46,388 nt of DNA, from positions 1 through 46,388 of the IMG/VR virus record IMGVR_UViG_3300050821_001168; one strand, 5' to 3'. Source of the DNA: a virus. Shown one piece after another: positions 1 through 46,388 of this stretch. The position numbers were made by a program, and so were the translations under genes. Under the pieces are notes generated by a model. That model was not told the DNA's origin and did no database searches. It saw nothing but the letters and a program-made list of their open reading frames with translations. Position 1 is the first letter of the stretch, and each line of letters begins with the position of its first letter.

Positions 1-98
1 GCGAGGCTTGATAATGGGTAAGACAACCTAAATGGAACGGGAATTTTTCACAACTGACGAATTGCTTGCCAAACGCGGCGGTATATTCACGGCTGACG
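1..98. repeat. Terminal direct repeat, left copy (closes the circle)
   Basis: Bases 1-98 are identical to bases 46291-46388. They contain the last 31 bases of the clamp gene and the first 67 bases of the DNA polymerase gene, so the repeat falls inside coding sequence. This is what an assembler leaves at the ends of a circular or circularly permuted genome, and it implies a unit length of 46,290 bp. A true short packaged terminal repeat would more often lie in non-coding DNA, so an assembly overlap is the more likely reading. Confidence 0.95.
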
Positions 99-1915
99 TT
101 GAAAGTTTTCCAAACTATTTTCTCGCGGGTTTTCGTTGTTACGATACACATAAATACGTTTATTTTGAAGCAATAGACGACGAACCGATACCGCGAGATT
201 GGTTAAGTTGGATGCTGGACAATTTTATGATTGTTGGCTTCAATATCAAACGATATGACTTGCTCGTATTGGCTTGTGCGATATGCAATCCGTTCGCTAC
301 CGCGGCAACACTTCACAAGCTCACACACGATATCATCGTTATGGACGCTTCACAGTCAGAGCTTGAAACCGAATACAACTTCAAAGTTCCGCAAACCAAT
401 CATATCGACTTGATTGAAGTTGCACCGCTTCGCGGAAGTTTGAAACTATATGCGGCACGCCTACACTGTAGGCATATTCAGGATTTGCCTTTCGAGCCAT
501 CCACTGTGTTGACGCGCGAACAAATTGCGATAACACGAACGTATAACTTTAATGATCTTGAAAATACCGAATTACTTCTAACATCACTAAATGACTCCCT
601 TAACTTGCGCGCGGCCTTGTCGATTGAATATCGTCAGGACTTACGCTCAAAGTCCGATGCACAGATAGCGGAAGCCGTCATAAGTTCCGAAGTTCAACGG
701 CTAACCGGCAATCGCATTAAGAAACCTAAGATTAATCCCGATGCCGTTTACGCTTATAAAGTGCCATGTTGGTTGACGTTTCAAACGCCAGAATTGCAAG
801 AATTGCTGGCGATCATTGCATCAACTAAATTTGGAACCGACCAACTAGGTCGTATGATTATGCCGCCGCAATTGGAAGGTCGAAGGGTTACTATCGGTAA
901 TGCGGTTTATCGTTTGGGCATAGGGGGGTTGCATAGCTCTGAGCATTGCATTGGTTATCGGGCCGATGATGAAACGTATCTCATTGACCGTGACGTAACA
1001 GGGTATTACGGGAATGTGATTTTGACGCTCGGGCTTTATCCCGCACACATTGGCGAAGTATTCTTGACGGTGTATCGCACCATCGTTGCACGTCGCACGA
1101 AAGCTAAGGAAGATAAAAATTACATCGTATCAGAAGGTCTTAAAATCACGCAAAATGGAGCATTTGGCAAGTTGGGTTCCCCTTATTCGATTTTTTATTC
1201 ACCTGACTTAATGGTGCAAATCACGTTGACCGGTCAACTTGCATTATTAATGCTTATTGAGTTTTTAGAATATTTCGATATCGAAGTAATATCGGCAAAC
1301 ACGGACGGTATTCTATCGCGGGTAAAAAAATATCAGCGTTCAACGTTTGAAACAATAATTAAAGGTTGGGAGCAACAAACCGGGTTTCTGACCGAGGAAA
1401 CGCTATACCGCGCCGTTTATTCTCGCGATGTAAACAACTATATCGCGATCATGGTCGATGGATCATATCCGAAGTTAAAAGGTGCATATAGCAAACCGTC
1501 AGATGACGTGAAGCGTCAAACTTTCATCCTTCAAAAAAACCCTTTCGCATTGGTTGTCATTGACGCGGCGGTTGAACATATCACAAGCGGTAAACCGATC
1601 GAGCAAACGATCTGCGAGTGCCGCGCGTTTGAACGTTTCGTTATGGTTCGCAATGCTACAGGTGGAGCGCAACGCGATGGCCGGTATCTTGGAAAGGTAA
1701 TCAGATGGTATTACGCAACCGGAGTAATCGGTCCAATTGTGCGATGCACGAACGGTGATAAAATCAGCATGTCAGATGGCGGTAAACCGGTGATGACAAT
1801 GCCGGAAGTGTTTCCTAACGATATCAACTATGAGGTATATATTCGTTTATCTGTTGAAATTCTTGAAGATATCGGGTTTCAACCGAAGAAAGGCGAACAA
1901 TTGCGATTTCTATAG
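32..1915 (+). CDS. Family-B DNA polymerase with 3'-5' exonuclease
   Basis: Replicative DNA polymerase of 627 aa. Exonuclease motifs: Exo I D22-V-E24, Exo II N71..D76, Exo III Y171..D175. A YxGG-like GIGGLHS lies near 297-303. Palm motif A is D321-V-T-G-Y-Y, motif B is K371..N375-G-A-F-G, motif C is N423-T-D425-G, and a KLKG motif is at 481-484. The first Asp of the usual DTD is Asn; the metal-binding second Asp is kept. Motifs A and B are only about 50 residues apart, so the fingers are short and there is no room for the TPR1 insertion of protein-primed polymerases. The protein ends in QLRFL, resembling the QL(S/D)LF clamp-binding peptide. The ATG follows the stop of the clamp gene directly across the circular join. 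Polymerase assignment is firm; clamp binding is inferred. Confidence 0.93.
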   Translation: MEREFFTTDELLAKRGGIFTADVESFPNYFLAGFRCYDTHKYVYFEAIDDEPIPRDWLSWMLDNFMIVGFNIKRYDLLVLACAICNPFATAATLHKLTHDIIVMDASQSELETEYNFKVPQTNHIDLIEVAPLRGSLKLYAARLHCRHIQDLPFEPSTVLTREQIAITRTYNFNDLENTELLLTSLNDSLNLRAALSIEYRQDLRSKSDAQIAEAVISSEVQRLTGNRIKKPKINPDAVYAYKVPCWLTFQTPELQELLAIIASTKFGTDQLGRMIMPPQLEGRRVTIGNAVYRLGIGGLHSSEHCIGYRADDETYLIDRDVTGYYGNVILTLGLYPAHIGEVFLTVYRTIVARRTKAKEDKNYIVSEGLKITQNGAFGKLGSPYSIFYSPDLMVQITLTGQLALLMLIEFLEYFDIEVISANTDGILSRVKKYQRSTFETIIKGWEQQTGFLTEETLYRAVYSRDVNNYIAIMVDGSYPKLKGAYSKPSDDVKRQTFILQKNPFALVVIDAAVEHITSGKPIEQTICECRAFERFVMVRNATGGAQRDGRYLGKVIRWYYATGVIGPIVRCTNGDKISMSDGGKPVMTMPEVFPNDINYEVYIRLSVEILEDIGFQPKKGEQLRFL

Positions 1916-23939: not shown

Positions 23940-25484
23940 TTAAAATGGCAACGGAACTACAATGTAATTGACCGTTACCATAATCGTGCTATTACCGGTC
24001 GTCGGATTGCCAACTATCGTTCCAACGTAAAGGGCTTTGTTCTCATAAAGAGATATGTTTGCCGCAGAAGTTCCCGTCGGAGCGGAACTATTATAACCAT
24101 TGTTATAAAAATAGTTTCCGGTTGCCGTTATTAACGCCGCCGCTGAACCGGGATCAGCAGCAGGGGTATTGTTGTTGCCATAAAAAATTACGGGTGGATA
24201 ATTGTTTACATAAGCAATCGAGTTAAATAACAAAGCATAAGATGAAGTGATAACCTGTATATAATATCCCGCCCCCGGTGCGGCAACGATCTGGATTGGA
24301 GTTGTGTGCAACGCGAGAATTTGCGCGCTACTGAGAGTTATGGTCGCTTGTGAAATTGCCCCCGCTGCAATTGTGCAACTCGAGCCGAGTGTGCAATTTT
24401 GACCATTTACCGTTGTCGAGGAATTAGCAAGAGATGAATTCGGAACGGATACAAGTCGCGCATTCGGCAATGTTCCCGATGATATATTAGCGGCATTTGT
24501 TGCATCGGTAGTTGCACTCGCCGCGAACGAAACGCCGCCCGTCTTATTGCACGTCATTACCCCCGAATTGGTAATTGTGCAATCGCGCGACATTAAAACG
24601 CCAGTGGCCACATTTGATCCGTTGCCAACGAATATATATCCATTCGTAAGCGTTTGTCCTAATCCGTCAGTTATCCCGTAACCGGCAAGAGTTGTGGGCA
24701 ATCCTGTTAAATCGGCAAACGGAACCGCTGTAACGCCATAACCGGCAAGTGTGGTTGGCGTTGTTCCAATTTGCGACCATGTGATGTTAGTTAACGCCGC
24801 TCCGCTACCCGATGGCGCGAGATAATCCGTTCCGGCAATTGCCGCACTAACCGAAGTTCCATTCCCTTTCAAAATACCGCTTATGTCAACCTCAATTGCA
24901 ATTTGAGGGTTTGTCGATGGACTTGTTACGTTACCGCGAAAGCCATTTAAGTCGGTAATAGAAACGTTCGTAACGGTTCCAGTTCCCCCAATGGGAATGC
25001 AACCAACCAACCCACCGTTGTTATAGACGCCATATCCGAGACCGCAACTCCCGCTAATCGCGGAACCGACCGTTATACCGCTGCCCCCGCCAGTAAATCC
25101 AATCGCACCACTCGCAACATAAATGCGAAGCGTTGTCGGACCTGACAACGATATGCCGCCAATAAATACGTTACTGATACCCGATACGGTAGGAAGTATC
25201 GAAGTTCCGATGCCAGCCGGAACCGGAATGCTGGACAACCCAAATCCGCCGGTAATCGCAACGGCACTCGTATTGCTGCCAAATGCGACAAATGCCTCGT
25301 TTAATCCGACATTGAAAATGTTAACCGTGTTGCATGAACTGCTATAACGCGGCAATTGAATTTTTGAATTTGTCGGCCCAACCGTCAAGGTTGTAACGCC
25401 ACACACCGTTGGAGTTTGAGCTTGCGCCAGCGAACTTAAAATGCACAATAAGCCAGCGAAAAATACAGCCTTAAACTTGTTCAT
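23940..25484 (-). CDS. Signal-peptide-bearing modular fibre-like protein
   Basis: 514 aa from the ATG at 25484, with SD GAGG; an earlier TTG only adds four residues. It opens with a classic type I signal peptide (MNKFKAVFFAGLLCILSSLA then QA cut before QT). Residues ~25-140 form a domain shared with the next gene upstream (CGVTTLTV..., IQLPRYSSSCNTV, TTLRIYVASGAIGFTGGGSG). After it come tail-fibre-type repeats (TPTTLAGYGVT, LPTTLAGYGIT) and GQNCTLGSSCTIAAGAI, then a ~140-residue C-terminal beta domain. Repeats suggest an adhesin or fibre; a signal peptide on a phage fibre is unusual, since tails assemble in the cytoplasm. It may act in the periplasm or on the cell surface instead. Confidence 0.8.
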   Translation of the reverse strand: MNKFKAVFFAGLLCILSSLAQAQTPTVCGVTTLTVGPTNSKIQLPRYSSSCNTVNIFNVGLNEAFVAFGSNTSAVAITGGFGLSSIPVPAGIGTSILPTVSGISNVFIGGISLSGPTTLRIYVASGAIGFTGGGSGITVGSAISGSCGLGYGVYNNGGLVGCIPIGGTGTVTNVSITDLNGFRGNVTSPSTNPQIAIEVDISGILKGNGTSVSAAIAGTDYLAPSGSGAALTNITWSQIGTTPTTLAGYGVTAVPFADLTGLPTTLAGYGITDGLGQTLTNGYIFVGNGSNVATGVLMSRDCTITNSGVMTCNKTGGVSFAASATTDATNAANISSGTLPNARLVSVPNSSLANSSTTVNGQNCTLGSSCTIAAGAISQATITLSSAQILALHTTPIQIVAAPGAGYYIQVITSSYALLFNSIAYVNNYPPVIFYGNNNTPAADPGSAAALITATGNYFYNNGYNSSAPTGTSAANISLYENKALYVGTIVGNPTTGNSTIMVTVNYIVVPLPF

Positions 25485-25492
25485 TTCAAACC

Positions 25493-26800
25493 TCAATTCG
25501 TCGTGACGGTATTTCCAGCGGCAATTAACGTAGCTTTTGCGGTTAACCCCGCTCCGGTTGGCGTCGCAGACGTTCCGGTAATTGTGACCGTGTTGCCGGT
25601 GTAAAGCGTAGTGCCTCCCGTGCCGTTTAATGCGGCAAGAGCGATCAACAAATTGTTTACGCTCGTAACATTCAAGGCGCAGCTTGTAAACGTGACATTT
25701 TTCGTAACTGATTTTAACGATGAACCAATATTGAATGTGACAAGTCCATCGGTATTAAGGTTGAAAGTAAGCGAATTCCCCGAACCGTCATCGCCGATAG
25801 TCTGAATAACTGGCAACTGAACATTAATTAGCGATGTCATATCGTTGATCTTAAAATCACGAACAACGGTATTAAGTCTCGGAAACGATAAAGTAGGAAG
25901 CCCATTCATCGAGCCATTGTAAAAATTTCCAATGACAACCCTTCCGGCGATAGCGAAAAGCGGTAATGAGAGGGTTGTAACAGTGTCACCAAAAGGCCCA
26001 AAAGCACCTGTGCTGCCGGTCGAAGTAAATGCCGGTAAATTAACTGAGATTGCAGCGGTAAAACCTGGGCCAAAATCAGAGATAGAGTTTACAAACGATC
26101 CTAAATTAACTGAGGTTGCAGCGGTAAAGATCGCATAAAAACCACCGTTTATCATTACCAGCGAAGGAAAATTAACCGAGGTTGCAGCGGTAAAGATTGG
26201 AGAGAAATTACTATTAATTGCGACAACCGAACCATAATTAATCGTCGTAACATTGGTTGAAGCGGTTGTATCAGTTGCAATCAACCCGCTGACAGATATA
26301 TTGTCAATTTGGAGCGCACCTTCGTTAATAACGATATTTAGTCCTGTAGGATCACCGGTATAACTAATCGGATTAGTTAACGGTGCGCTCCCGCTCCCAC
26401 CCCCGCCTTTTGACGCAACCGCGCCGTTGCCGAGATAAATACGAAGCGTTGATGCACTCGATCCGGTAATAGCCGCGACGTAAGTTCCGCTACCACTCCA
26501 AACAGATGTGCTTACACCGGGCGGAATGGCTATGCTATTTAAGCCCACACCGGTTGTGTCTGCCGTGACGGAACTTGTGCCGATCGCAACAAATATTTCA
26601 ACCGCGCCATCGTTCAAAAGCGTAATGGTTCTGCAACTCGGGCTGACAGTGGGCAAAACGATACGAGCACTAGAGCTTGTGACCGTTAGTGTGGTCGCTC
26701 CGCATATTACCGAAGCTGGCGGCGGGCTTGGCGGCGGTTGTGCGAGCGTTGCCCCTGTCAGCGCAAGCAATAACGCAATTGCTAACTTAAATTTGTTCAT
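25493..26800 (-). CDS. Signal-peptide-bearing protein with solenoid repeats, paralogue of the next gene
   Basis: 435 aa from the ATG at 26800, SD GAGG placed as in its paralogue. The signal peptide is MNKFKLAIALLLALTGATLA before QPPPSPPP. Residues ~33-140 match the N-terminal domain of the 23940 gene (CGATTLTV, IVLPTVSPSCRTI, STLRIYLGNGAVASKGGGGSG). The rest is a leucine-rich-like solenoid of ~22-residue repeats (TAATSVNFPSLVMI, TAATSVNLGSFVN, TAAISVNLPAFTS), reminiscent of BspA-like surface proteins. It ends with a small NGTGGTTLYTGNTVTI domain. A protein-binding surface is likely; its target is unknown. It overlaps no neighbour and lies in the envelope-directed cluster. Confidence 0.78.
   Translation of the reverse strand: MNKFKLAIALLLALTGATLAQPPPSPPPASVICGATTLTVTSSSARIVLPTVSPSCRTITLLNDGAVEIFVAIGTSSVTADTTGVGLNSIAIPPGVSTSVWSGSGTYVAAITGSSASTLRIYLGNGAVASKGGGGSGSAPLTNPISYTGDPTGLNIVINEGALQIDNISVSGLIATDTTASTNVTTINYGSVVAINSNFSPIFTAATSVNFPSLVMINGGFYAIFTAATSVNLGSFVNSISDFGPGFTAAISVNLPAFTSTGSTGAFGPFGDTVTTLSLPLFAIAGRVVIGNFYNGSMNGLPTLSFPRLNTVVRDFKINDMTSLINVQLPVIQTIGDDGSGNSLTFNLNTDGLVTFNIGSSLKSVTKNVTFTSCALNVTSVNNLLIALAALNGTGGTTLYTGNTVTITGTSATPTGAGLTAKATLIAAGNTVTTN
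26040..26237 (-). repeat. Three 66-bp tandem repeats inside the solenoid gene
   Basis: Copies start at 26040, 26106 and 26172 (plus-strand coordinates). The first ~24 bases, TTAACYGAGRTTGCAGCGGTAAA, are nearly identical in all three, while the rest of each unit diverges. The period equals 22 residues of the encoded leucine-rich-like solenoid. High DNA identity in the core allows copy-number change without a frameshift. Confidence 0.85.
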
Positions 26801-26808
26801 TGTAAACC

Positions 26809-27027
26809 TCATTTTCTACCACATTCCAACACGATGAATTCATTTTGAGCTAAAATTCGTCGTTTTGTTTCATAGCTCAGATTTGCAATATCACTGTCGC
26901 TTAACAAAATTGGCGACAATCCGACGCAAACGCTATCCTTGCTTGAAGTCGGAACGCAACCGCTTATCAACGTCAGCATTACTGAGCCGATCAACGTTCG
27001 TATCAATGCTCTTTTTATCTTCAGCAT
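26809..27027 (-). CDS. Small lipoprotein, candidate Rz1-like outer-membrane spanin
   Basis: 72 aa. SD GAGG before ATG. It has a lipoprotein signal: basic start, hydrophobic LIGSVMLTLISGC with lipobox ISGC (C24). The mature part reads C..LSPILLSDSDIANLSYETK, RRILAQNEFIVLEC, similar to a small lipoprotein family common beside phage lysis genes (pattern CxxxxPIxxSxxDxLSxxTxxxILxxN). Its first ~95 bases overlap the short helical gene 26933-27097 in another frame, as Rz1 overlaps Rz. Rz1 function is a guess from architecture; lipoprotein status is well supported. Confidence 0.7.
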   Translation of the reverse strand: MLKIKRALIRTLIGSVMLTLISGCVPTSSKDSVCVGLSPILLSDSDIANLSYETKRRILAQNEFIVLECGRK

Positions 27028-36291: not shown

Positions 36292-38694
36292 TCAGAATTC
36301 AATCGCACATTGTATGCACTTAACACCGTTGCAATCGACGATCTTAAACGCACCATATTTGACTAATGATGACAGCGCATCATCAAACGCCTTACTCGCA
36401 CCCAACCGATGATTGCGAAACGGCGCGAGTTTAACGCAATAACCGCGTATAAGCGCAATCTGAAAATATCCGGCGTTTATCAACTCTTGTTTAACGCCGC
36501 CGTAACTTTGGAAAGCGTGATAGCCACCTTCAACCATTCGCACAACAAGATTTTTGATTTCAATTTCTCGCCTGTCGTCACCTGTTCCGACATCGCCAGT
36601 TTGAACTTTTTTCTGTATCTTATCAATTGTTGGTCGCACAATTGACATTGCTATATTGACGTGTTCCGCTTCGATCCGTGGCACCGGAGCATTGACGCCA
36701 ATTGCAATAAGGCTGGCGATTTGTCTGACGTGATCCTTGGCACGCGACCATATTCCAGCCATGTTTGACCGGCTTTTGTTCGCTTGTTCAATTTCTCTGT
36801 AACAAACATTATCGAACCATTCTAGCTGATCAATAACTGTTTGCGATACGGGTTGCACGTCAACGAATTCATCAGGTCTACCGGTCAACGTTGGCGCGAT
36901 ATTAATTGCCATATCATAAATATATGCAAGTTTTTCCAACAAGTCGGGAGGAACGTCATTAGTGGGTTTAGCGTTGCGCCGCGTCAATCCACCCTCATAT
37001 TCCAGAATGGTAAAGCGCGGCAGAAACCCAGATGTTAACAACGTTGTTGTCATTTCATCGTAAAATTGTTCCGGTGTTCCGGTTGCCAAAATTGTAAGGG
37101 ACGCTGATATGACCGCTTTCCCTTCGTCCGGCGAGGGACCGCGTAAACTATATTTTCGCGGGCGATAAATTCTTCCCGGTCCCGACATTTCCATAAGTCT
37201 TAACAATTCGGATCGTATTTGCGCCAGAAACGCGGGCGGATTGGGTAACGCCATCATTCGGATATGGTCAACATATTCATCGAGCTGCGCCAATGTTGAC
37301 GGTGCATTCATCATATGTTGTGCCAACCCTTGCGCCGATCCGAATTCCGTTGTTATCATTTTTTCCAAGTGATCAGCTCGAGCTTTACCGTCGATTGAAC
37401 GCGGCGGGGGCATCGCACGATACCGCGCGACCAATGCATTAAATCGCGCATCATTCGCCTGATAAGCAAAACTCTTTCCGGTGGATGTTTGCGCCAACAA
37501 TAAAAGATAAAGTGACAATCCCATCGTGCCATGACGGTATGAACGGCTGCACAACAAGCTCATAGTTGAAAGTGCGGATGCGATTGCAGCTTCCGCGACC
37601 TGATGAACGGAACTGCCCCAGGTGTGGGCAACAAGTTCACCCATCAACCCCGGAATTAAAATAGGTTTTTTAGGGTTTGCAAAATCAATCGGACGACCCG
37701 GATCAGCGGTGTAAGTTAATTGCGCCACGGTTGGCGATTGCATCCATTCGGCACTTTGAAAACTACCGAGTTGTGCAAGAGTGAACTTCGGTGCCCACGG
37801 TGTTACCTGATTTGCATCAAACCATGCGCCGTTAACTGGTATGGTGACTGTAGCGGGCATTCGATCAAACGCACGATGCACCATGCGCGACACGTAATCC
37901 CCTCGGTTGGCTTTGGTTCGCTTACCTAATGCACTGGCGCGAAATACACGCATGGTTTGCGTTGCGTTGCGACTATAAAACGCGATGATATTAATAAGCG
38001 CGAAGTCGGCTTCCGATTGGGATTTACCGCCGTAATCGGTTTCCCAATCCCCCGCCCATAATCTATCGAATTTATCACCATTCGCGGCGGTTTGCGCGTG
38101 TTGAATAACTTCAACATCGGTATAGTGTTCCGGTTGTAAGCCGTCATATTCAGTAACTTGTATCTCGGGACGAATTGCGTCGTATAGCTCAGTTACTTCA
38201 ACTTGACGATTTGCAATCGGAACCGGATTGATAACGTTTCCGGTGAACGTAAAAAATCTCAGATTATCGTAACATTCAATTCCGCGTGTTCGATTATTGG
38301 TCCCTATCGCGGAAAGCGACGCTTTGACGATAGTATGAACACCTAACCCGGACGGAGACAATTCCGAATAACTGTTGAGACGTTCGTAAATTAATCTGTG
38401 ATCTTCGGACCTAGCAAAGTCTGACGTTTTGTTGTCGAAATCAAAACCACAATAAGGATCAGACTTGGTAAACACGAAGCCCACACCGCAACCCATTTTA
38501 ACAGCTTGCGATACGGCAACGTCGAAAGATACCCAATCAAGAGGATTAGCGACACTTGCTTTTCTCCCGTCAACCGCGCGTAGCGGAATTTTAGTTGTTC
38601 GTGATGCACCTTTTTCATCGGTCGCAGTTTCATAAGCCCAATTGATCCATTGATCAAAGGCTTTCAATTCGTTTGGAATATTGTTAAACGACAC
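36292..38694 (-). CDS. Primase-polymerase with SF3/AAA-like helicase domain
   Basis: 800 aa with a GTG start. N-terminal primase-polymerase domain, related to phage NrS-1 type proteins: DWVSFDVAVSQAVKMGCGVG, then catalytic G-F-D85-F-D87-N, and SPSGLGVH (113-120) with the catalytic His. Residues ~220-280 (YGGKSQSEADFALINIIAFY ... YVSRMVHRAFDRM) match the NrS-1 helicase-binding domain. Residues ~340-660 form a DUF3987-like ATPase with Walker A AQTSTGKS (401-408) and a Walker-B-like LAQLDEYVD. It would prime and unwind DNA at the origin. It is co-transcribed leftward with the HTH gene, separately from the rest of replication. Confidence 0.88.
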   Translation of the reverse strand: MSFNNIPNELKAFDQWINWAYETATDEKGASRTTKIPLRAVDGRKASVANPLDWVSFDVAVSQAVKMGCGVGFVFTKSDPYCGFDFDNKTSDFARSEDHRLIYERLNSYSELSPSGLGVHTIVKASLSAIGTNNRTRGIECYDNLRFFTFTGNVINPVPIANRQVEVTELYDAIRPEIQVTEYDGLQPEHYTDVEVIQHAQTAANGDKFDRLWAGDWETDYGGKSQSEADFALINIIAFYSRNATQTMRVFRASALGKRTKANRGDYVSRMVHRAFDRMPATVTIPVNGAWFDANQVTPWAPKFTLAQLGSFQSAEWMQSPTVAQLTYTADPGRPIDFANPKKPILIPGLMGELVAHTWGSSVHQVAEAAIASALSTMSLLCSRSYRHGTMGLSLYLLLLAQTSTGKSFAYQANDARFNALVARYRAMPPPRSIDGKARADHLEKMITTEFGSAQGLAQHMMNAPSTLAQLDEYVDHIRMMALPNPPAFLAQIRSELLRLMEMSGPGRIYRPRKYSLRGPSPDEGKAVISASLTILATGTPEQFYDEMTTTLLTSGFLPRFTILEYEGGLTRRNAKPTNDVPPDLLEKLAYIYDMAINIAPTLTGRPDEFVDVQPVSQTVIDQLEWFDNVCYREIEQANKSRSNMAGIWSRAKDHVRQIASLIAIGVNAPVPRIEAEHVNIAMSIVRPTIDKIQKKVQTGDVGTGDDRREIEIKNLVVRMVEGGYHAFQSYGGVKQELINAGYFQIALIRGYCVKLAPFRNHRLGASKAFDDALSSLVKYGAFKIVDCNGVKCIQCAIEF

Positions 38695-39498: not shown

Positions 39499-39882
39499 AT
39501 GATCACACGCGCGCAACTCCTGTTTAATTTTCGATTGGCTCAAATTCGGCTTGATGCCGCGAAGGCAATCGAAATGCGTTGGCGTATGTTGGTTACTGCG
39601 ACGTTTGATAACGTGCGAATTGGCGCGAATGTGTCAGATGACGGTGCGGTTAAAATGATTGCGCGAGTTGGAGTTAAACTTGACGATAATCGCGATAAAG
39701 TTAGCGCGGCAATGAGTAAAATTGCGAGCGAATTCCCGGATATTAATTTTAACGATATTGTTGATTGGAAATACACCATTTCTCAAACGGGCTTTCTCGC
39801 GTTGCCTGATGAAGTGCAAACATACCTGTCCGATATTGTGACAATTACACCCGGAACGCCAACCGTGAGCATTGTCGAATGA
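39499..39882 (+). CDS. Unknown replication-operon protein
   Basis: 127 aa from the ATG at 39499, one base after the previous stop; no clear SD, so it is probably coupled. It starts MITRAQLLFNFRLAQIRLDA and continues with a beta-rich domain GANVSDDGAVKMIARVGVKL, a helix RDKVSAAMSKIASEFPDINF and EVQTYLSDIVTITPGTP. The stop overlaps the Sak4-like start (ATGA). Unknown function. Confidence 0.65.
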   Translation: MITRAQLLFNFRLAQIRLDAAKAIEMRWRMLVTATFDNVRIGANVSDDGAVKMIARVGVKLDDNRDKVSAAMSKIASEFPDINFNDIVDWKYTISQTGFLALPDEVQTYLSDIVTITPGTPTVSIVE

Positions 39883-40562
39883 AAGTATTTTATACGAATG
39901 ATGCAAATAACCGCTTTTGGTCAATTTTCATTTATGGATTGGCGGGAGCGGGGAAAACACCATTAGCCGCGACATTACCCAATCCTATCATTGTGACATC
40001 GGAACCGGGGTTAAGATCGTTACAGGATATCAGAATTCCATACATATTCGGTCGTAACAAAAAGGAAGCAATGGACGCATTGCAATGGATTTGTCAAAGC
40101 GCGGAAGCGAGGCAATATCAAAGCGTATTTTTTGATAGCATAAGCGCAAATTCGGAATGGAACCTTGCTGACGAGAAACGCAAATCATCTGATCCGCGCC
40201 GTTTCAGTCCCGCGACAACCGCCGCGACGATGGAAATGGTTATGGCCTATCTCGACATCCCGATTGTCGCGCATAAGCATCTGGTTATGACGTGCAAGGC
40301 AATGAAGAATACCGAACCGACGCCGGGCAGCTTTCCAATTGAACCGCTTACAGTTGTTCCGAAGTTAGGACCCGCCTTGCCGTATCACTTTGACGAGGTT
40401 TTATACCTAAGTCGTCATCGTAACGAACAGCATCAAGAATATGCTGTATTGACGTGTCGAACAAATGACCTTTGTTTGGCACGGGACCGAAGCGGTAAGT
40501 TAGACCTATACGAACCACCAAACTTAACACACATCATCAACAAAACGAACGGAGTTGCGTAA
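39879..40562 (+). CDS. Sak4-like RecA-fold recombination ATPase
   Basis: 227 aa. P-loop GLAGAGKT (20-27) after a strand, then IIVTSEPGLRSLQDI, and a Walker-B-like VFFDSIS (D86). Further conserved: DIPIVAHKHLVMTCKA and VPKLGPALPYHFDEVLYL. This matches phage Sak4-type single-strand annealing proteins (AAA_24 group), which work with an SSB-like partner. Here the partner is probably the DUF669-like gene two positions downstream. Residue 28 after the P-loop Thr is Pro, which is unusual. Confidence 0.82.
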   Translation: MKVFYTNDANNRFWSIFIYGLAGAGKTPLAATLPNPIIVTSEPGLRSLQDIRIPYIFGRNKKEAMDALQWICQSAEARQYQSVFFDSISANSEWNLADEKRKSSDPRRFSPATTAATMEMVMAYLDIPIVAHKHLVMTCKAMKNTEPTPGSFPIEPLTVVPKLGPALPYHFDEVLYLSRHRNEQHQEYAVLTCRTNDLCLARDRSGKLDLYEPPNLTHIINKTNGVA

Positions 40563-40777: not shown

Positions 40778-41389
40778 ATGGGTTGGTTTGATGCAACACA
40801 GATTGATCCGGCAACGGCTCAATCACAATTTCCGATTGGTCGTCACCCGGTCATCATCAAGAGTTCCGCAAGCCTCGCGGTTAAAGACAAACCAAACGAA
40901 GGGTTACTCGCATTGACGTGCGAAATAATCGACGGTCCATCAAAAGGTGTGACCGGTGTTTACCGGTTAAACTTGTGGAATTCAAATCCGCAAGCGGCGG
41001 AAATCGCCAGCAAGCAATTGTCGGCAATTTGCCACGTCACCGGGGTTTATCAATTGAACGATACCGTTAACCGGTGTTCCGAATTGTTCGGTAAACCGTT
41101 TTGCGTTATCGTATCGGCCCAACAAGCCGACGCGCGCTACACTCAGGTTGATGGCGTAACCGACATGGCGGGCAATCCTCCAGCCAAGGGGAATGTGCCT
41201 TCGCAAGCCGCACCGCACCCGCAGGCAGCGGCAGCGGCACAAGGTTGGCAACAAGCCGCGCCGTCACAAGCACAACCGCCCCAAGGCGGTCCGAGCTGGC
41301 AGCAACCCCCCGCTCAGGCACAACCGAACAACCCGGCACCAGCTTGGGCACAACAACCGAACAACCCGTCGCCAGCTTGGGCGAGGTAA
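40778..41389 (+). CDS. DUF669-like single-stranded DNA-binding protein
   Basis: 203 aa. Residues 1-115 match DUF669: FPIGRHPVIIKSSASLAVKD, then LLALTCEIIDGPSKGVTGVY and RLNLWNSNPQAAEIASKQLS followed by ICHVTGV, an OB-like fold that occurs with Sak4 recombinases. The C-terminal ~75 residues are Gln/Pro/Ala-rich with WQQ and NNPAPAWAQ repeats and end in PAWAR, not in the acidic tip of classical SSB. Likely it protects ssDNA and loads the Sak4-like ATPase. The repeats make the DNA GC-rich here. Confidence 0.78.
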   Translation: MGWFDATQIDPATAQSQFPIGRHPVIIKSSASLAVKDKPNEGLLALTCEIIDGPSKGVTGVYRLNLWNSNPQAAEIASKQLSAICHVTGVYQLNDTVNRCSELFGKPFCVIVSAQQADARYTQVDGVTDMAGNPPAKGNVPSQAAPHPQAAAAAQGWQQAAPSQAQPPQGGPSWQQPPAQAQPNNPAPAWAQQPNNPSPAWAR

Positions 41390-41395
41390 TCGACC

Positions 41396-42247
41396 GTGAT
41401 CCGGTTTAGTGGGCTAGAGCGAAAAGAGTTAGCCGCGTCCATTAAACAGGACATTGACGACGCTTGTGTGCGCCTATTTGATCAAAGTTACCGAGATCAT
41501 TTAGGCGCAAGCGTCATCGGGCAGGAATGCAACCGCCGAATTGTTTACGGCTTCCGTTGGATGCATCGTGAACAATTCGACGGGCGCATGTTAAGGTTGT
41601 TCAATCGCGGACATTTGGAGGAATTGCGGATTGCAAATTGGTTGAAAGCGGCATCAATTGCCGTTTTTGGCGTTTCACAAGATGGTGAACAAATTCGCAT
41701 TTCAGCAAACGAACAACATTATGGCGGATCATTAGACGGTGTGGGCAAGCTCCCGCCCAAATACCAGATTGAAATACCGTTTTTACTCGAAATGAAAACG
41801 CATAACGACAAACGATTTAAGCAACTTGTTAAGAATGGCGTTCGTATCGCGAAGCCGGAACACTTTATCCAAATGTCATGTTATGCCCAAATGTATGAAC
41901 TTCAATATGGCATATATTTTGGTATAAACAAGAATGACGACGATATCCACGTTGAAGTGCTGGAAATGGATTGGCAATTAGGCATTAATCACACGGAGAA
42001 AGCGCGAAATGATATCTACGCTACGCAATTGCCTTCTCGTATTGCAGCAAATCCCGCCTATGGCACTTGCAAATATTGTCCTATGGTTGGCGTTTGCCAT
42101 TTGGGGCACAGCGTGGATATTAACTGCCGTTCTTGCATCAATTCTGTGCCGATAAACGATCAGCAATGGTTTTGTAAACACTGGAATGCCACAATCCCTA
42201 AAGAGGCAATACCGCAAGCGTGTGGTGAATGGAGCGAATTTAGATGA
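41396..42247 (+). CDS. Cas4-like PD-(D/E)XK nuclease with Fe-S cysteines
   Basis: 283 aa. N-terminal LGASVIGQECNRRIVYGFRW and RLFNRGHLEELRIANWL, then GGSLDG with D114 and LLEMKTHN with E132 and K134, the catalytic core of Cas4/RecB-like exonucleases. C45 together with C225-x2-C228-x5-C234 fits the Cys-Xn-Cys-x2-Cys-x5-Cys signature of 4Fe-4S Cas4/AddB nucleases. A second four-Cys set follows (C244, C247, C260, C276), probably zinc. It would make single strands for Sak4-mediated annealing. Stop overlaps the next start by four bases. Confidence 0.86.
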   Translation: MIRFSGLERKELAASIKQDIDDACVRLFDQSYRDHLGASVIGQECNRRIVYGFRWMHREQFDGRMLRLFNRGHLEELRIANWLKAASIAVFGVSQDGEQIRISANEQHYGGSLDGVGKLPPKYQIEIPFLLEMKTHNDKRFKQLVKNGVRIAKPEHFIQMSCYAQMYELQYGIYFGINKNDDDIHVEVLEMDWQLGINHTEKARNDIYATQLPSRIAANPAYGTCKYCPMVGVCHLGHSVDINCRSCINSVPINDQQWFCKHWNATIPKEAIPQACGEWSEFR

Positions 42248-42444
42248 CCCATCCCGAACAAATACAAGAAATGATACGTTTCATTAAGCATACAACGGGA
42301 GAAGATGCCAAGGATGACGTATTTTTACCCGCAAAGGTTATCTGTGCGTTAATAGAAACCGTTGAAAACCAATCTAAAAAAATTGAAAGTTTAATTGACG
42401 ATCTTAACGCATTAATGAAACGAGTTGGACCGCCAATCGTATGA
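42244..42444 (+). CDS. Small coiled-coil protein
   Basis: 66 aa, overlapping both neighbours by four bases (ATGA at each end). It is helical: EQIQEMIRFIKHTTGEDAKD, then VICALIETVENQSKKIESLI and DDLNALMKRVG, with heptad-like spacing. It lies between the nuclease and the helicase and may bridge them. No family known. Confidence 0.68.
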   Translation: MTHPEQIQEMIRFIKHTTGEDAKDDVFLPAKVICALIETVENQSKKIESLIDDLNALMKRVGPPIV

Positions 42445-44060
42445 GCGCACCATTTAATCCTCGTTGGTATCAGACCAAAGCGGTAAAATCGCTTTATGAT
42501 TACTTTGAAAAATTCAACGGCAACCCCTTGATTGCGATGCCCACCGGCAGCGGTAAATCTGGCGTAAATGCGATGTTTATACAAAGCGTGCTATCACAAT
42601 ATCCAAATCAACGAATTTTGTTATCGTCACACGTTAAAGAACTGTTGATTAACAATTATCGCGCGTTAATGCAAATATGGCCTAACGCGCCAGCCGGGAT
42701 ATATTCATCCGGGTTGAAGCAACGGGATTTGTTCGCGCCAATTACGTTTGGCGGTATCGCGTCAATTGTGAAAATCATCGAAGCGTTCGGGCATATTGAT
42801 CTTTTCATAATTGACGAGTGCCACTTGTTAGGTCCGAATTCGGATAGTATGTATATGCGCGTCATTCTCGCGTTGCGCGAACGCAATCCTAAGCTAAAAG
42901 TGATTGGATTAACTGCTACCCCTTGGCGCACCGGTATGGGATTGTTGACAAATGGGGACATCTTTACCGATATCGCATATGATCTTTGCACAATGGATAA
43001 CTATAAACGATTGTTTATGGAAGGTTATTTGGTCAAGCCGGTTCCCAAGCGAGTTGACAATGAGATTGACGTTAGTAATGTGGCTATATCAACTACCGGG
43101 GATTACAGCCAATCGGGCTTAAACGAAGTCACTCGTAATGAAAAAATTACGTGGGCGGCGTTGAACGAAAGTCTTAATAAAAATCCCGATCGGCATTGTC
43201 GCTTGGTGTTTTGCACCGGCATAGAACATGCGTTATTAGCCGCTCAAATGTTGAAATATATCGGCTTGCGCGCGGAAGCCGTTCATAGCAAGATGCCTGA
43301 GAATGACCGGGACGATATTTTTAAGGCATTTTTCGCGGGCGAACTTGATGCACTGACAAACAACGGTATTGCAACAACCGGAATCGACCATCCGCCAATT
43401 GACCACGAAATTATGCTACGCCCAACAATTAGCGTTGGTTTATGGGTGCAAATGGTTGGTCGAGGAATGCGACCATATGAAAACAATGGTTGGGTTAAAG
43501 AGAATTGCATCATCTCGGATCACGCGGGTAACGCGCGACGTTTAGGACCGATTGACGATCCTTATATACCGAAGATGAAAGGGAAAGGAAGCGGCGATGC
43601 ACCTGTTAAAATTTGCCCCGCGTGCGATGCATACAATCATGCGTCCGCGCGAGTGTGCGATTTTTGCGGTGAACCGTTTGAAATTAAAATAGGTTACGTG
43701 CCAAAAGCATATGACGATGTAATTATACGTTCCGACCTTCCGATATATGAGACATATAAGGTTGATCATGTATATTACACGCAACATTTACGACGCGACG
43801 CAACGCCGGAAACCAAACCGACGATTAAAGCCGCGTATCAGTGCGGCATGTTGCGTTTTCAAGAGTTCATTGCAATTGAAGCTCCGGGGTATATTGGAAA
43901 GAAAGCCCGCGATTGGTGGCGTCAACGTTTCTCACAAGAGGGATTTGTCCCGACAACGGTTAATGATGCCATGCAATACATTGACAGATTGGTTGCACCT
44001 AAAGCAATCAAGGTTCACGTCAACAAAAAATATCCTGAAATTGTAGGTTATGATTATTGA
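42441..44060 (+). CDS. Superfamily 2 DEAD/DEAH-box helicase
   Basis: 539 aa. Motifs: Q-like RWYQTKAV (8-15), Walker A PTGSGKS (34-40), DECH (125-128), TAT (158-160), and QMVGRGMRP (337-345) as motif VI. C392-x2-C395 and C406-x2-C409 form a zinc ribbon. The last ~120 residues (TIKAAYQCGMLRFQEFIAIE, then ARDWWRQRFSQEGFVP) resemble the accessory tail of phage helicases of this type. It probably acts in replication or recombination with the nuclease encoded just before it. Confidence 0.92.
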   Translation: MSAPFNPRWYQTKAVKSLYDYFEKFNGNPLIAMPTGSGKSGVNAMFIQSVLSQYPNQRILLSSHVKELLINNYRALMQIWPNAPAGIYSSGLKQRDLFAPITFGGIASIVKIIEAFGHIDLFIIDECHLLGPNSDSMYMRVILALRERNPKLKVIGLTATPWRTGMGLLTNGDIFTDIAYDLCTMDNYKRLFMEGYLVKPVPKRVDNEIDVSNVAISTTGDYSQSGLNEVTRNEKITWAALNESLNKNPDRHCRLVFCTGIEHALLAAQMLKYIGLRAEAVHSKMPENDRDDIFKAFFAGELDALTNNGIATTGIDHPPIDHEIMLRPTISVGLWVQMVGRGMRPYENNGWVKENCIISDHAGNARRLGPIDDPYIPKMKGKGSGDAPVKICPACDAYNHASARVCDFCGEPFEIKIGYVPKAYDDVIIRSDLPIYETYKVDHVYYTQHLRRDATPETKPTIKAAYQCGMLRFQEFIAIEAPGYIGKKARDWWRQRFSQEGFVPTTVNDAMQYIDRLVAPKAIKVHVNKKYPEIVGYDY

Positions 44061-44817
44061 CATGATAGACGTTGAAATAGCTGCACAAATTTCCTCACAA
44101 TTGATCGACGGGGAAGTGATTGAAATCGTTCTTGACGGTGTAACACATGAAAGGAAACTTCTAGAGCATGTGGGCACATACGGTTTATGTGTTCAAGGTC
44201 CGACAAACAAGTTAACCATACCAGTTGAAATGACAACGGCATACAGAAAGGCTGTAGAAATGGCACGTTCACCCTCAATACCGGGCACACCGGCACGTCG
44301 TCCCGGCAGACCTGCAAAGACGGGTCCACAAGCTCCCGTAGTGCATCCTGGCACGCCGCCAGGGGGTTGGTTGCCCCCTGGTAGCACAACCGGCCCTAGC
44401 CTTGCGCGGGACGTGGCAACGGCTGAAATGGCATTCACGCCGCCAGGGGAACAAACCCTCCCTCAGAGCAAGCCCGCGAGTGCCATAATTCCGGCATCGG
44501 TCGAGGTTCCCGTGCAACTCGCGGAAAGCGATGGCGATTGGATTGAAAATGCCGTTGATGAAATGTTTGACGATATGCGATTGAAGTTTAACGCACTGTT
44601 AAATGGAATTAGTGCCCAAATGGGAGCGGTATCCGATCAAAATGCGGAAGTTGCCGCCCAACAACCGAAACTTAGGCAATATACGTGTTTTGATTGTGAA
44701 CACGTTGATATGGACGGAACAGGCAGTTGCGGTAAATTTAAGATGGTTCCTCCAATGAACGTCATCGTTGATCCAAAAACAGAATGCCCCGATTTCTCGC
44801 TTGAATTACCGTTTTGA
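44050..44817 (+). CDS. Unknown protein with AT-hook-like and four-Cys modules
   Basis: 255 aa; start overlaps the helicase gene by 11 bases (ATG at 44062 also possible). Residues 1-75 are a small beta domain (LIDGEVIEIVLDGVTHERKL). RRPGRPAK (83-90) looks like an AT-hook, followed by a Pro-rich, GC-rich-coded linker. The C-terminus has C213-x2-C216-x10-C227-x18-C246, a possible zinc site similar to the second four-Cys set of the nuclease at 41396. DNA binding is suggested by the hook. Function unknown. Confidence 0.65.
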   Translation: MIIDMIDVEIAAQISSQLIDGEVIEIVLDGVTHERKLLEHVGTYGLCVQGPTNKLTIPVEMTTAYRKAVEMARSPSIPGTPARRPGRPAKTGPQAPVVHPGTPPGGWLPPGSTTGPSLARDVATAEMAFTPPGEQTLPQSKPASAIIPASVEVPVQLAESDGDWIENAVDEMFDDMRLKFNALLNGISAQMGAVSDQNAEVAAQQPKLRQYTCFDCEHVDMDGTGSCGKFKMVPPMNVIVDPKTECPDFSLELPF

Positions 44818-45331: not shown

Positions 45332-46321
45332 ATGCCTCGCAAACCAAAACCGGTTTCAGCTCCCGACGATAGATTAAAACTTATCGAAGCGTTGAAGTTT
45401 GCGAGCATTGTAACAAAAGACGCGGAAGGTGTGCAAGAATTTGTCTCCATTAAAGATGGATGGATGTTGGCTGAAAACGATACATTTACAATCGGCATAC
45501 CTGTCGATGTCGCGATTGAATTGTGCCCACACGGAGAACAGTTTCAAGCTGCGCTAAATCAGTGTGGTCCGCAATTTCAATTAACGCAAATTGAAACTAA
45601 AGCTCTGTCAATTAAGAGTGGAAATTTTCGCGCACTTGTGCCAGCAATTGAAACGTCACAATTGCCGCTAGACCCGGATGAACCGGTCGCTATGATAAAT
45701 GATGCATTGGGCGAAGCGTTCAAATCGTGCATCGGCTTTATGAGTAAAGGGGAGCGCATAATCAACACCGCCATATGCGTGCGAGCTAATACAATGGTCG
45801 CCACCAATGGCGGAATGTTAATTGAATATTGGCATGGAATTGACTTGCCGGGACCGTTAAACATTCCAAAAAAAACGGTTGATACTGTGATCAAAGCCGG
45901 GAAACCACTCGCCAAATTTGGCTTCTCTCAATCAAGCGTTACTTTGTATTTTGATGACAACTCGTTCATCAAAACAAGGTTGGTTGCTGGCGATTATCCA
46001 AATTCCGAGCGACTGTTCAATAGCGTTACCGGATCATTCCAATTAATCTGGCCTGAATTTTTTGTTGCACTCAAAGCCATATCGGCATTTGTGCAAAACG
46101 ATTGCATTTTCTTTCACGATAATTTTCTGGCCTCTCATCGCTCGCTTGATCTGGGCGCGAATTATCGCGTTGAAGGTTTGCCCGGCGGGCACACGTTTAG
46201 CGCGGCATACTGGCGCGCTATCGAGCCTCATGTTAAGCGACTGTGCATAGGCGAACATGCAAAGCCGCTGGCGTTCGCGGGCGATCATGCGCGAGGCTTG
46301 ATAATGGGTAAGACAACCTAA
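45332..46321 (+). CDS. DnaN-like sliding clamp
   Basis: 329 aa. It resembles the bacterial beta clamp in its late parts: RLVAGDYPNSERLFNSV (cf. GxFPDYxxVIP), EFFVALKAISAFVQND (cf. LLxALxRVxxLANE), LDLGANYRVEGLPGGHTFSA, and the end PLAFAGDHARGLIMGKT, where bacterial clamps end in YLIMPMRL. The length fits a three-domain monomer. It would form a ring that tethers the polymerase. Its stop TAA lies directly before the ATG of the family-B DNA polymerase through the circular join, so the two are expressed together. Confidence 0.8.
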   Translation: MPRKPKPVSAPDDRLKLIEALKFASIVTKDAEGVQEFVSIKDGWMLAENDTFTIGIPVDVAIELCPHGEQFQAALNQCGPQFQLTQIETKALSIKSGNFRALVPAIETSQLPLDPDEPVAMINDALGEAFKSCIGFMSKGERIINTAICVRANTMVATNGGMLIEYWHGIDLPGPLNIPKKTVDTVIKAGKPLAKFGFSQSSVTLYFDDNSFIKTRLVAGDYPNSERLFNSVTGSFQLIWPEFFVALKAISAFVQNDCIFFHDNFLASHRSLDLGANYRVEGLPGGHTFSAAYWRAIEPHVKRLCIGEHAKPLAFAGDHARGLIMGKTT

Positions 46322-46388
46322 ATGGAACGGGAATTTTTCACAACTGACGAATTGCTTGCCAAACGCGGCGGTATATTCACGGCTGACG
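46291..46388. repeat. Terminal direct repeat, right copy
   Basis: Exact copy of bases 1-98; see the left copy. Confidence 0.95.
46322..46388 (+). CDS. Partial copy of the DNA polymerase gene start
   Basis: The first 67 bases of the polymerase gene (22 codons plus one base), cut by the window end. It is the redundant part of the circular overlap, not a second gene; the full copy is at 32-1915. Confidence 0.93.
   Translation, partial: MEREFFTTDELLAKRGGIFTAD

What the first reader, a model, noticed from the sequence alone, without database searches (positions are those of the whole stretch)
32..1915. Family-B polymerase ending in a sliding-clamp-binding-like peptide, next to a DnaN-like clamp
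The polymerase C-terminus is QLRFL, close to the QL(S/D)LF peptide by which bacterial polymerases (E. coli Pol II ends in QLGLF) bind the beta clamp. The gene directly upstream encodes a DnaN-like clamp, with no gap between the genes. This suggests a phage family-B replicase that runs on its own bacterial-type clamp.
Basis: partly seen in the sequence, partly recalled or inferred. Interest (0 to 1): 0.75.

Follow-up and report, generated by a model that had tools for sequence, protein, structure and literature searches.

The report
Phage polymerase carrying a clamp-binding tail
This virus of bacteria encodes its own DNA-copying enzyme next to its own ring-shaped DNA clamp, and the enzyme ends in a short peptide of the kind that plugs into such rings; [quoted passage not shown]

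Summary
The 627-aa family-B polymerase (32-1915) ends in QLRFL. The record is circular (98-bp identical ends), so the DnaN-like clamp at 45332-46321 lies directly upstream; its stop codon abuts the polymerase ATG. The clamp models as a full three-domain bacterial beta clamp (pLDDT 94.9; Foldseek E 7e-18). The pair is a known, widely annotated phage module (phage 73, DLP1/2, Seurat).

The terminal peptide is real. Among 172 non-redundant relatives, 110 have a clamp gene upstream on the same strand. Of these, 61 carry only a C-terminal peptide (K-Q-[IL]-x-F-F, or ..LF), 35 only an N-terminal D-x-x-G-[LF]-F-W peptide, one both, 13 neither by strict pattern. Of 50 without a clamp gene, 48 have neither. 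So the peptide tracks the clamp and changes ends between clades. The tree holds only about three clamp gains or losses, so independent contrasts are few.

Binding itself is not shown: an AlphaFold2 clamp-polymerase fusion left the peptide undocked. I found no published account of this peptide, though a key 2011 survey was not readable. Best reading: a phage family-B replicase tethered to its own beta-type clamp by a short terminal peptide, the ring probably loaded by the host clamp loader.

The parts
32..1915 (+). family-B DNA polymerase, 627 aa, with intact 3'-5' exonuclease motifs
   Evidence: phrog_1252 E 4e-179; motifs; Foldseek of a relative's model matches archaeal PolBs
1898..1912 (+). 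codons of the C-terminal clamp-binding-like peptide QLRFL
   Evidence: sequence; collinear with Q-[LI]-x-[FL]-F of relatives and with the bacterial consensus QL[S/D]LF
45332..46321 (+). DnaN-like beta sliding clamp, 329 aa, three domains; its last 31 bases also appear as window 1-31
   Evidence: phrog_947 E 4e-47; profile hits to PDB beta clamps; AF2 pLDDT 94.9; Foldseek TM 0.78, E 7e-18
1..98 (.). copy of 46291-46388: overlap showing the record is circular and the clamp abuts the polymerase
42441..44060 (+). superfamily-2 helicase, same operon (helicase upstream of clamp and polymerase is a recurring order in relatives)
   Evidence: PF04851, phrog_16; same order
41396..42247 (+). Cas4-type exonuclease of the replication/recombination module
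   Evidence: phrog_1990 E 5e-90
40778..41389 (+). DUF669 single-strand DNA-binding protein
   Evidence: PF05037, phrog_6015
39879..40562 (+). Sak4-like RecA-fold ATPase (not a clamp loader)
   Evidence: AAA_24, phrog_124
36292..38694 (-). primase/helicase with NrS-1-polymerase-type HBD domain
   Evidence: PF22763, phrog_3022
44050..44817 (+). Cys-rich-ended protein with SSB-like C-terminal tip (..PDFSLELPF); possible partner, function unknown

Best explanation
A phage replicase made of a proofreading family-B polymerase and the phage's own beta-type ring. The clamp encircles DNA, probably as a head-to-tail dimer like bacterial DnaN (inferred from the three-domain fold). The polymerase hangs on it by a flexible tail ending in QLRFL, which enters the cleft between clamp domains II and III as QLGLF of E. 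coli Pol II does on beta. A sister clade does the same with a peptide at the polymerase N-terminus (D-x-x-G-[LF]-F-W). The window shows no clamp-loader gene, so the host DnaX-type loader probably loads the ring. Shown: circular adjacency, both folds, conservation of the peptide, its co-occurrence with the clamp gene, and the change of ends. Inferred: physical binding, gain of processivity, loading by the host.
For: Clamp fold. E. coli DnaN pocket residues T172, G174, L177, P242, V247 align with T158 (88/103 identical), G160 (62/103), L163 (hydrophobic in nearly all), P223 (96/103) and L228 (I/V/L in 89/103); V361/M362 match I324/M325 by eye. Peptide logo from the C-terminus: F 54/54, F/L 52/54, then S/K/T/G, L/I 27/54, Q 24/54, K 24/54, the same register as QL[S/D]LF. 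Contingency: with clamp 97/110 strict, without 2/50; most of the 13 strict exceptions carry variants (RQDLFD, EGLFDE, LGLWW, MFFD). The C+ pattern occurs in 38/516 other long ORFs of these loci, the N+ pattern in 1/516. The clamp is upstream on the same strand in 110/110, median distance 11 nt. Thirty-nine no-clamp records searched whole gave no clamp, while 6/6 positive controls did. The three clamp transitions on the tree usually all go the same way.
Against: The AF2 fusion of a relative's clamp and polymerase left the terminal six residues at pLDDT < 50 and pTM 0.63: no predicted docking, although monomer weights and 18 paired rows make this a weak test. The clamp changes state only about three times on the tree, so the Fisher value (3e-26) overstates independence; the sign test gives p 0.25. 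The C-terminal pattern was fixed after seeing the first relatives. L001-L003 have QLGLF but no phage clamp. L305 has an N-terminal LFWW but no clamp in its 25-kb fragment.
Confidence: 0.82

Rival explanations
1. The polymerase's peptide serves mainly to reach the host beta clamp, and the phage clamp does something else (for example competes with the host replisome).
For: QLRFL resembles the host-type motif; L001-L003 keep QLGLF with the clamp gene missing from the same operon, which looks like use of the host clamp.
Against: The peptide is absent in 48/50 relatives without a phage clamp; the clamp is upstream and close in all 110 loci; clamp-bearing relatives mostly have FF forms rather than canonical QLGLF.
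Confidence: 0.1
2. The terminal peptides bind another protein (primase, helicase or SSB) or stabilise the polymerase fold, and their link with the clamp gene is shared ancestry of the module.
For: Only about three independent clamp transitions; AF2 does not dock the peptide.
Against: Register identical to the known beta-binding consensus; the tail is disordered in the model, not part of the fold; two different ends of the polymerase carry peptides of this type almost only in clamp-bearing clades.
Confidence: 0.07
3. The phage clamp is loader-independent and binds DNA directly, so the peptide only aids assembly (a variant of the loading step, compatible with own-clamp binding).
For: No clamp-loader gene recognised in the window; some loader-less viral clamps are strongly basic (recalled from Kazlauskas and Venclovas 2011, not readable here).
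Against: The clamp has net charge -3 and the family median is -4, unlike basic loader-independent factors.
Confidence: 0.12

Closest known systems
Septimatrevirus-type phage module (phage 73 gp26/gp27, DLP1/DLP2 gp27/gp28, vB_Pae-Kakheti25)
   Same: Adjacent clamp ('replicative clamp' / 'DNA polymerase processivity factor') and PolB, preceded by SF2 helicase, Cas4 exonuclease, DUF669 protein; PolB 46-47% identical; PolB also ends in a hydrophobic tip (ALSFF)
   Different: Those are siphoviruses of about 43 kb; the window phage has a tail sheath; the phage 73 clamp carries an SSB-like DDIPF tail that the window clamp lacks
Queuovirinae module (Seurat, JenK1, Nipunavirus) and BcepGomr
   Same: Same PolB family and clamp family, in the same order
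   Different: PolB has no C-terminal peptide; it has an N-terminal D-x-x-G-[LF]-F-W peptide
E. coli DNA polymerase II with beta clamp
   Same: Family-B proofreading polymerase with a QLGLF beta-binding motif (PMC3716654)
   Different: Pol II is a host repair enzyme using the host clamp; the phage polymerase is shorter, only distantly related and paired with its own clamp gene
T4 gp43 polymerase with gp45 clamp
   Same: Phage family-B polymerase tethered by its C-terminal peptide to a phage clamp (general knowledge)
   Different: gp45 is a trimeric PCNA-like ring with its own gp44/62 loader; here the clamp is of bacterial beta type and no loader gene is seen

Membership tests
Family-B DNA polymerase (phrog_1252 phage group) | Exo I-III and polymerase motifs A-C; PolB fold | tested here: met
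   phrog_1252 E 4e-179; motifs; Foldseek of a relative's model hits KOD, Tgo and P. calidifontis PolB. Motif C reads NTDG, not DTDS.
Bacterial beta sliding clamp (DnaN) | Three-domain clamp fold over the full length | tested here: met
   AF2 pLDDT 94.9; Foldseek TM 0.78 to bacterial DnaN, E 7e-18; profile E 1e-5
Bacterial beta sliding clamp (DnaN) | Hydrophobic peptide pocket residues | tested here: met
   Aligned to E. coli DnaN and largely conserved in 103 relatives; pocket geometry not inspected (coordinates not available)
Bacterial beta sliding clamp (DnaN) | Forms a ring and is loaded on DNA | not testable with these tools
   needs biochemistry
Beta-clamp-binding motif proteins (QL[S/D]LF; QxxLF) | Terminal or exposed Q-L-x-[LF]-[FL] peptide, conserved | tested here: met
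   QLRFL; conserved in homologues
Beta-clamp-binding motif proteins (QL[S/D]LF; QxxLF) | Peptide occupies the clamp cleft | tested here: inconclusive
   AF2 single-chain fusion of relative L094 left the peptide at pLDDT < 50
Septimatrevirus-like replication module | helicase - small ORF(s) - clamp - PolB order on one strand | tested here: met
   window; relatives

The most novel reading that the evidence does not exclude
One phage polymerase family carries its clamp-binding peptide at either the C- or the N-terminus depending on clade, and gains or loses it together with its clamp gene. About a third of the clamps also carry an SSB-type tip that could call in the host clamp loader through its chi subunit. 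The family would then be a self-contained beta-type replicase that borrows only the host loader.
Probability: 0.45. Interest if true: 0.72.

Novelty: new variant of a known kind. Interest (0 to 1): 0.55.

Why it matters
Phage clamp-polymerase pairs of the bacterial beta type are common in genome annotations but, as far as I could find, not dissected. A short peptide that appears with the clamp gene, is missing without it and swaps ends of the polymerase gives a direct handle on how phage replicases attach to a ring, and suggests clean tests (delete five residues, swap ends). It also bears on how a phage clamp without its own loader gets onto DNA, and on why one lineage that lost the clamp gene (L001-L003) ends in the exact QLGLF used on the host clamp.

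Tried and rejected
Chance: rejected by comparison with other ORF ends and internal positions. Clamp simply missed in the no-clamp group: 39 records searched whole with no hit, while 6/6 positive controls were found. Loader-independent basic clamp: net charge is slightly negative. A first fusion alignment (A6) was discarded because clamp-only rows aligned onto the polymerase. C- versus N-terminal peptide as independent contrasts on the tree was uninformative: the two classes are clade-level. Literature searches for phage beta-type clamps with clamp-binding peptides found nothing specific; Kazlauskas and Venclovas 2011 (gkr461) is not held.

Full report
WHAT IS THERE. The ORF at 32-1915 (+) encodes 627 aa and ends in ...EDIGFQPKKGEQLRFL. 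It is a family-B DNA polymerase: phrog_1252 E 4e-179, with weak palm-region similarity to Pol alpha and E. coli Pol II, intact exonuclease motifs (D22-E24, N71/D76, Y171/D175), motif A D321, motif B 371-379, and motif C NTDG in place of DTDS. Bases 1-98 are identical to 46291-46388, so the record is circular. The gene directly upstream is therefore the 329-aa ORF at 45332-46321, whose TAA stop abuts the polymerase ATG. G000 is a virus record. Tail sheath, baseplate, tape measure, portal and terminase genes make it a myovirus. The replication genes lie together: Sak4-like ATPase, DUF669 ssDNA-binding protein, Cas4-type exonuclease, SF2 helicase, small ORFs, clamp, polymerase, and a primase/helicase on the other strand. 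No clamp loader was recognised among the larger ORFs.

THE CLAMP. Sequence search of one protein against PDB found nothing, but family profiles hit bacterial DnaN at E about 1e-5, and the AlphaFold2 model (pLDDT 94.9, pTM 0.89) matches bacterial beta clamps over the full length (TM 0.78, E 7e-18) and other phage clamps. hhalign to E. coli DnaN aligns VATNG with VATDG and YPNSERLF with FPDYRRVL. Positions matching the E. coli peptide pocket (T172, G174, L177, P242, V247; pocket membership partly from general knowledge) are T158, G160, L163, P223 and L228; T158 is identical in 88, G160 in 62 and P223 in 96 of 103 relatives, and L163 and L228 stay mostly hydrophobic. The match of I324/M325 to V361/M362 is my own alignment by eye of the C-termini. 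I could not inspect coordinates. Net charge is -3 (family median -4), which fits a loader-dependent ring better than a basic DNA-binding factor.

THE PAIR IS KNOWN. tblastn finds 438 phage records with a PolB match over most of the query and 274 with a clamp match. In Septimatrevirus, DLP1/2, Loki, Seurat, JenK1, BcepGomr and others the two genes are neighbours or near neighbours and annotated as DNA polymerase and clamp or processivity factor. So a phage PolB next to a DnaN-like clamp is not news.

THE PEPTIDE. From 169 loci I took 85 PolBs below 80% identity. A terminal [LIMFW]F, at most one residue from the end, is present in 62/85, against 6/184 other long ORFs of the same loci and 1% of internal positions. 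Counting back from the end in those ending in F: F 54/54, F or L 52/54, then S/K/T/G, then L/I (27/54), Q (24/54), K (24/54). The consensus K-Q-[IL]-x-F-F is collinear with the bacterial QL[S/D]LF (consensus and Pol II QLGLF as given in PMC3716654). The last two positions are nearly fixed while the linker before them varies (entropy 0 and 0.9 bits at -1 and -2 against 2.2-3.3 further in), as expected of a tethered short motif. QLRFL of the window fits with L in place of the final F.

CO-OCCURRENCE AND A CHANGE OF ENDS. Looking at relatives without the tail, I found that Queuovirinae-type PolBs, which end at '..DIGY', start instead with M-R-x-D-[AS]-x-G-[LF]-F-W-x-D. With further scans the set grew to 172 PolBs below 75% identity. 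With a clamp gene (110): C-terminal peptide only 61, N-terminal only 35, both 1, strict neither 13. Most of the 13 carry looser variants (RQDLFD in phiAxp-1, EGLFDE, LGLWW, MFFD/MTLF starts, TARLI). Without a clamp gene in the locus (50): neither 48, C-terminal 2, N-terminal 0. The other 12 could not be called. Strict tally 97/110 against 2/50, Fisher 3e-26. The same C pattern occurs in 38/516 other ORFs and the N pattern in 1/516. In all 110 the clamp lies upstream on the same strand, median 11 nt from the polymerase, 71 within 150 nt. Searching 39 no-clamp records whole gave no clamp, and six positive controls all rang.

LIMITS. On a FastTree tree built without the tails, clamp presence changes only three times, and the C-, N- and no-clamp groups are largely three clades. 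The Fisher value therefore counts relatives, not events: three independent contrasts, in most pairings all in the expected direction, p 0.25. The C-terminal pattern was chosen after seeing the first relatives. The informative exceptions are L001-L003, which keep the operon but have lost the clamp gene and end in exactly QLGLF, suggesting use of the host clamp, and L305, which has LFWW at its N-terminus but no clamp in a 25-kb fragment.

DOCKING TEST. In relative L094 the clamp and polymerase ORFs are in frame, separated by TAA, so reading that stop as glycine gives a single chain of 1076 aa (a computational device only; no readthrough is claimed). With 18 fused and 42 polymerase-only rows (A7) AlphaFold2 gave confident clamp and polymerase domains but pTM 0.63, and residues 1071-1076 below pLDDT 50. 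The peptide was not docked. This is a weak test (monomer weights, one clamp subunit, shallow pairing) but it must be counted; it shows only that the tail is a disordered tether. Foldseek of this model matches beta clamps and archaeal PolBs.

MECHANISM. Best supported: the tail ties the polymerase to the phage's own clamp, as Pol II is tied to beta or T4 gp43 to gp45. Loading is probably by the host. A side observation bears on this: about a quarter of the clamp ORFs (55/216) end in an SSB-like acidic tip such as EDDIPF, against 4/1500 other ORFs; the SSB tip is a ligand of the chi subunit of the bacterial clamp loader (PMC13213242 abstract). That these tips recruit the loader is my inference.

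NOVELTY. The module and its annotation are known. I found no paper describing the clamp-binding peptide of this family or its change of ends, but the 2011 survey of viral replicases was not held, so priority is unproven.

Noticed in passing
clamp genes of L004, L028, L092, L100, L119, L157 and others: 33 of 107 non-redundant phage clamps end in an SSB-like acidic tip (..EDDIPF); over all loci 55/216 clamp ORFs against 4/1500 other ORFs. It might recruit the host clamp loader via chi, or other SSB partners.
   Followed up: partly
window 44050-44817: 255-aa protein with a Cys-rich end and the tip ..PDFSLELPF; the ORF just upstream of the clamp in L089 (closest clamp relative) ends ..DFTDDFIPF. 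The SSB-like tip may sit on this neighbour instead of on the clamp.
   Followed up: partly
L001, L002, L003: PolBs ending in the exact E. coli Pol II motif QLGLF, with no clamp gene found; in L003 the operon is otherwise kept, with a gap between helicase and polymerase. Possible switch to the host clamp.
   Followed up: partly
L020, L040, L076, L123, L155 and others, polymerase N-terminus: Many PolBs of the C-terminal-peptide clade also begin with MFF[DEN]; a second terminal contact is possible.
   Followed up: no
window 1298-1309 (motif C): The polymerase family has NTDG where family-B enzymes usually have DTDS; one of the two motif-C aspartates is Asn throughout the eight aligned.
   Followed up: no
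window 23940-25496 and 25493-26812 (-): Two large ORFs (518 and 439 aa) next to the terminase with no PHROG match at E 1e-3.
   Followed up: no
L082 4389-7359: A PolB of this family with a C-terminal extension to about 980 aa ending ..DSLF, no clamp in its short contig.
   Followed up: no
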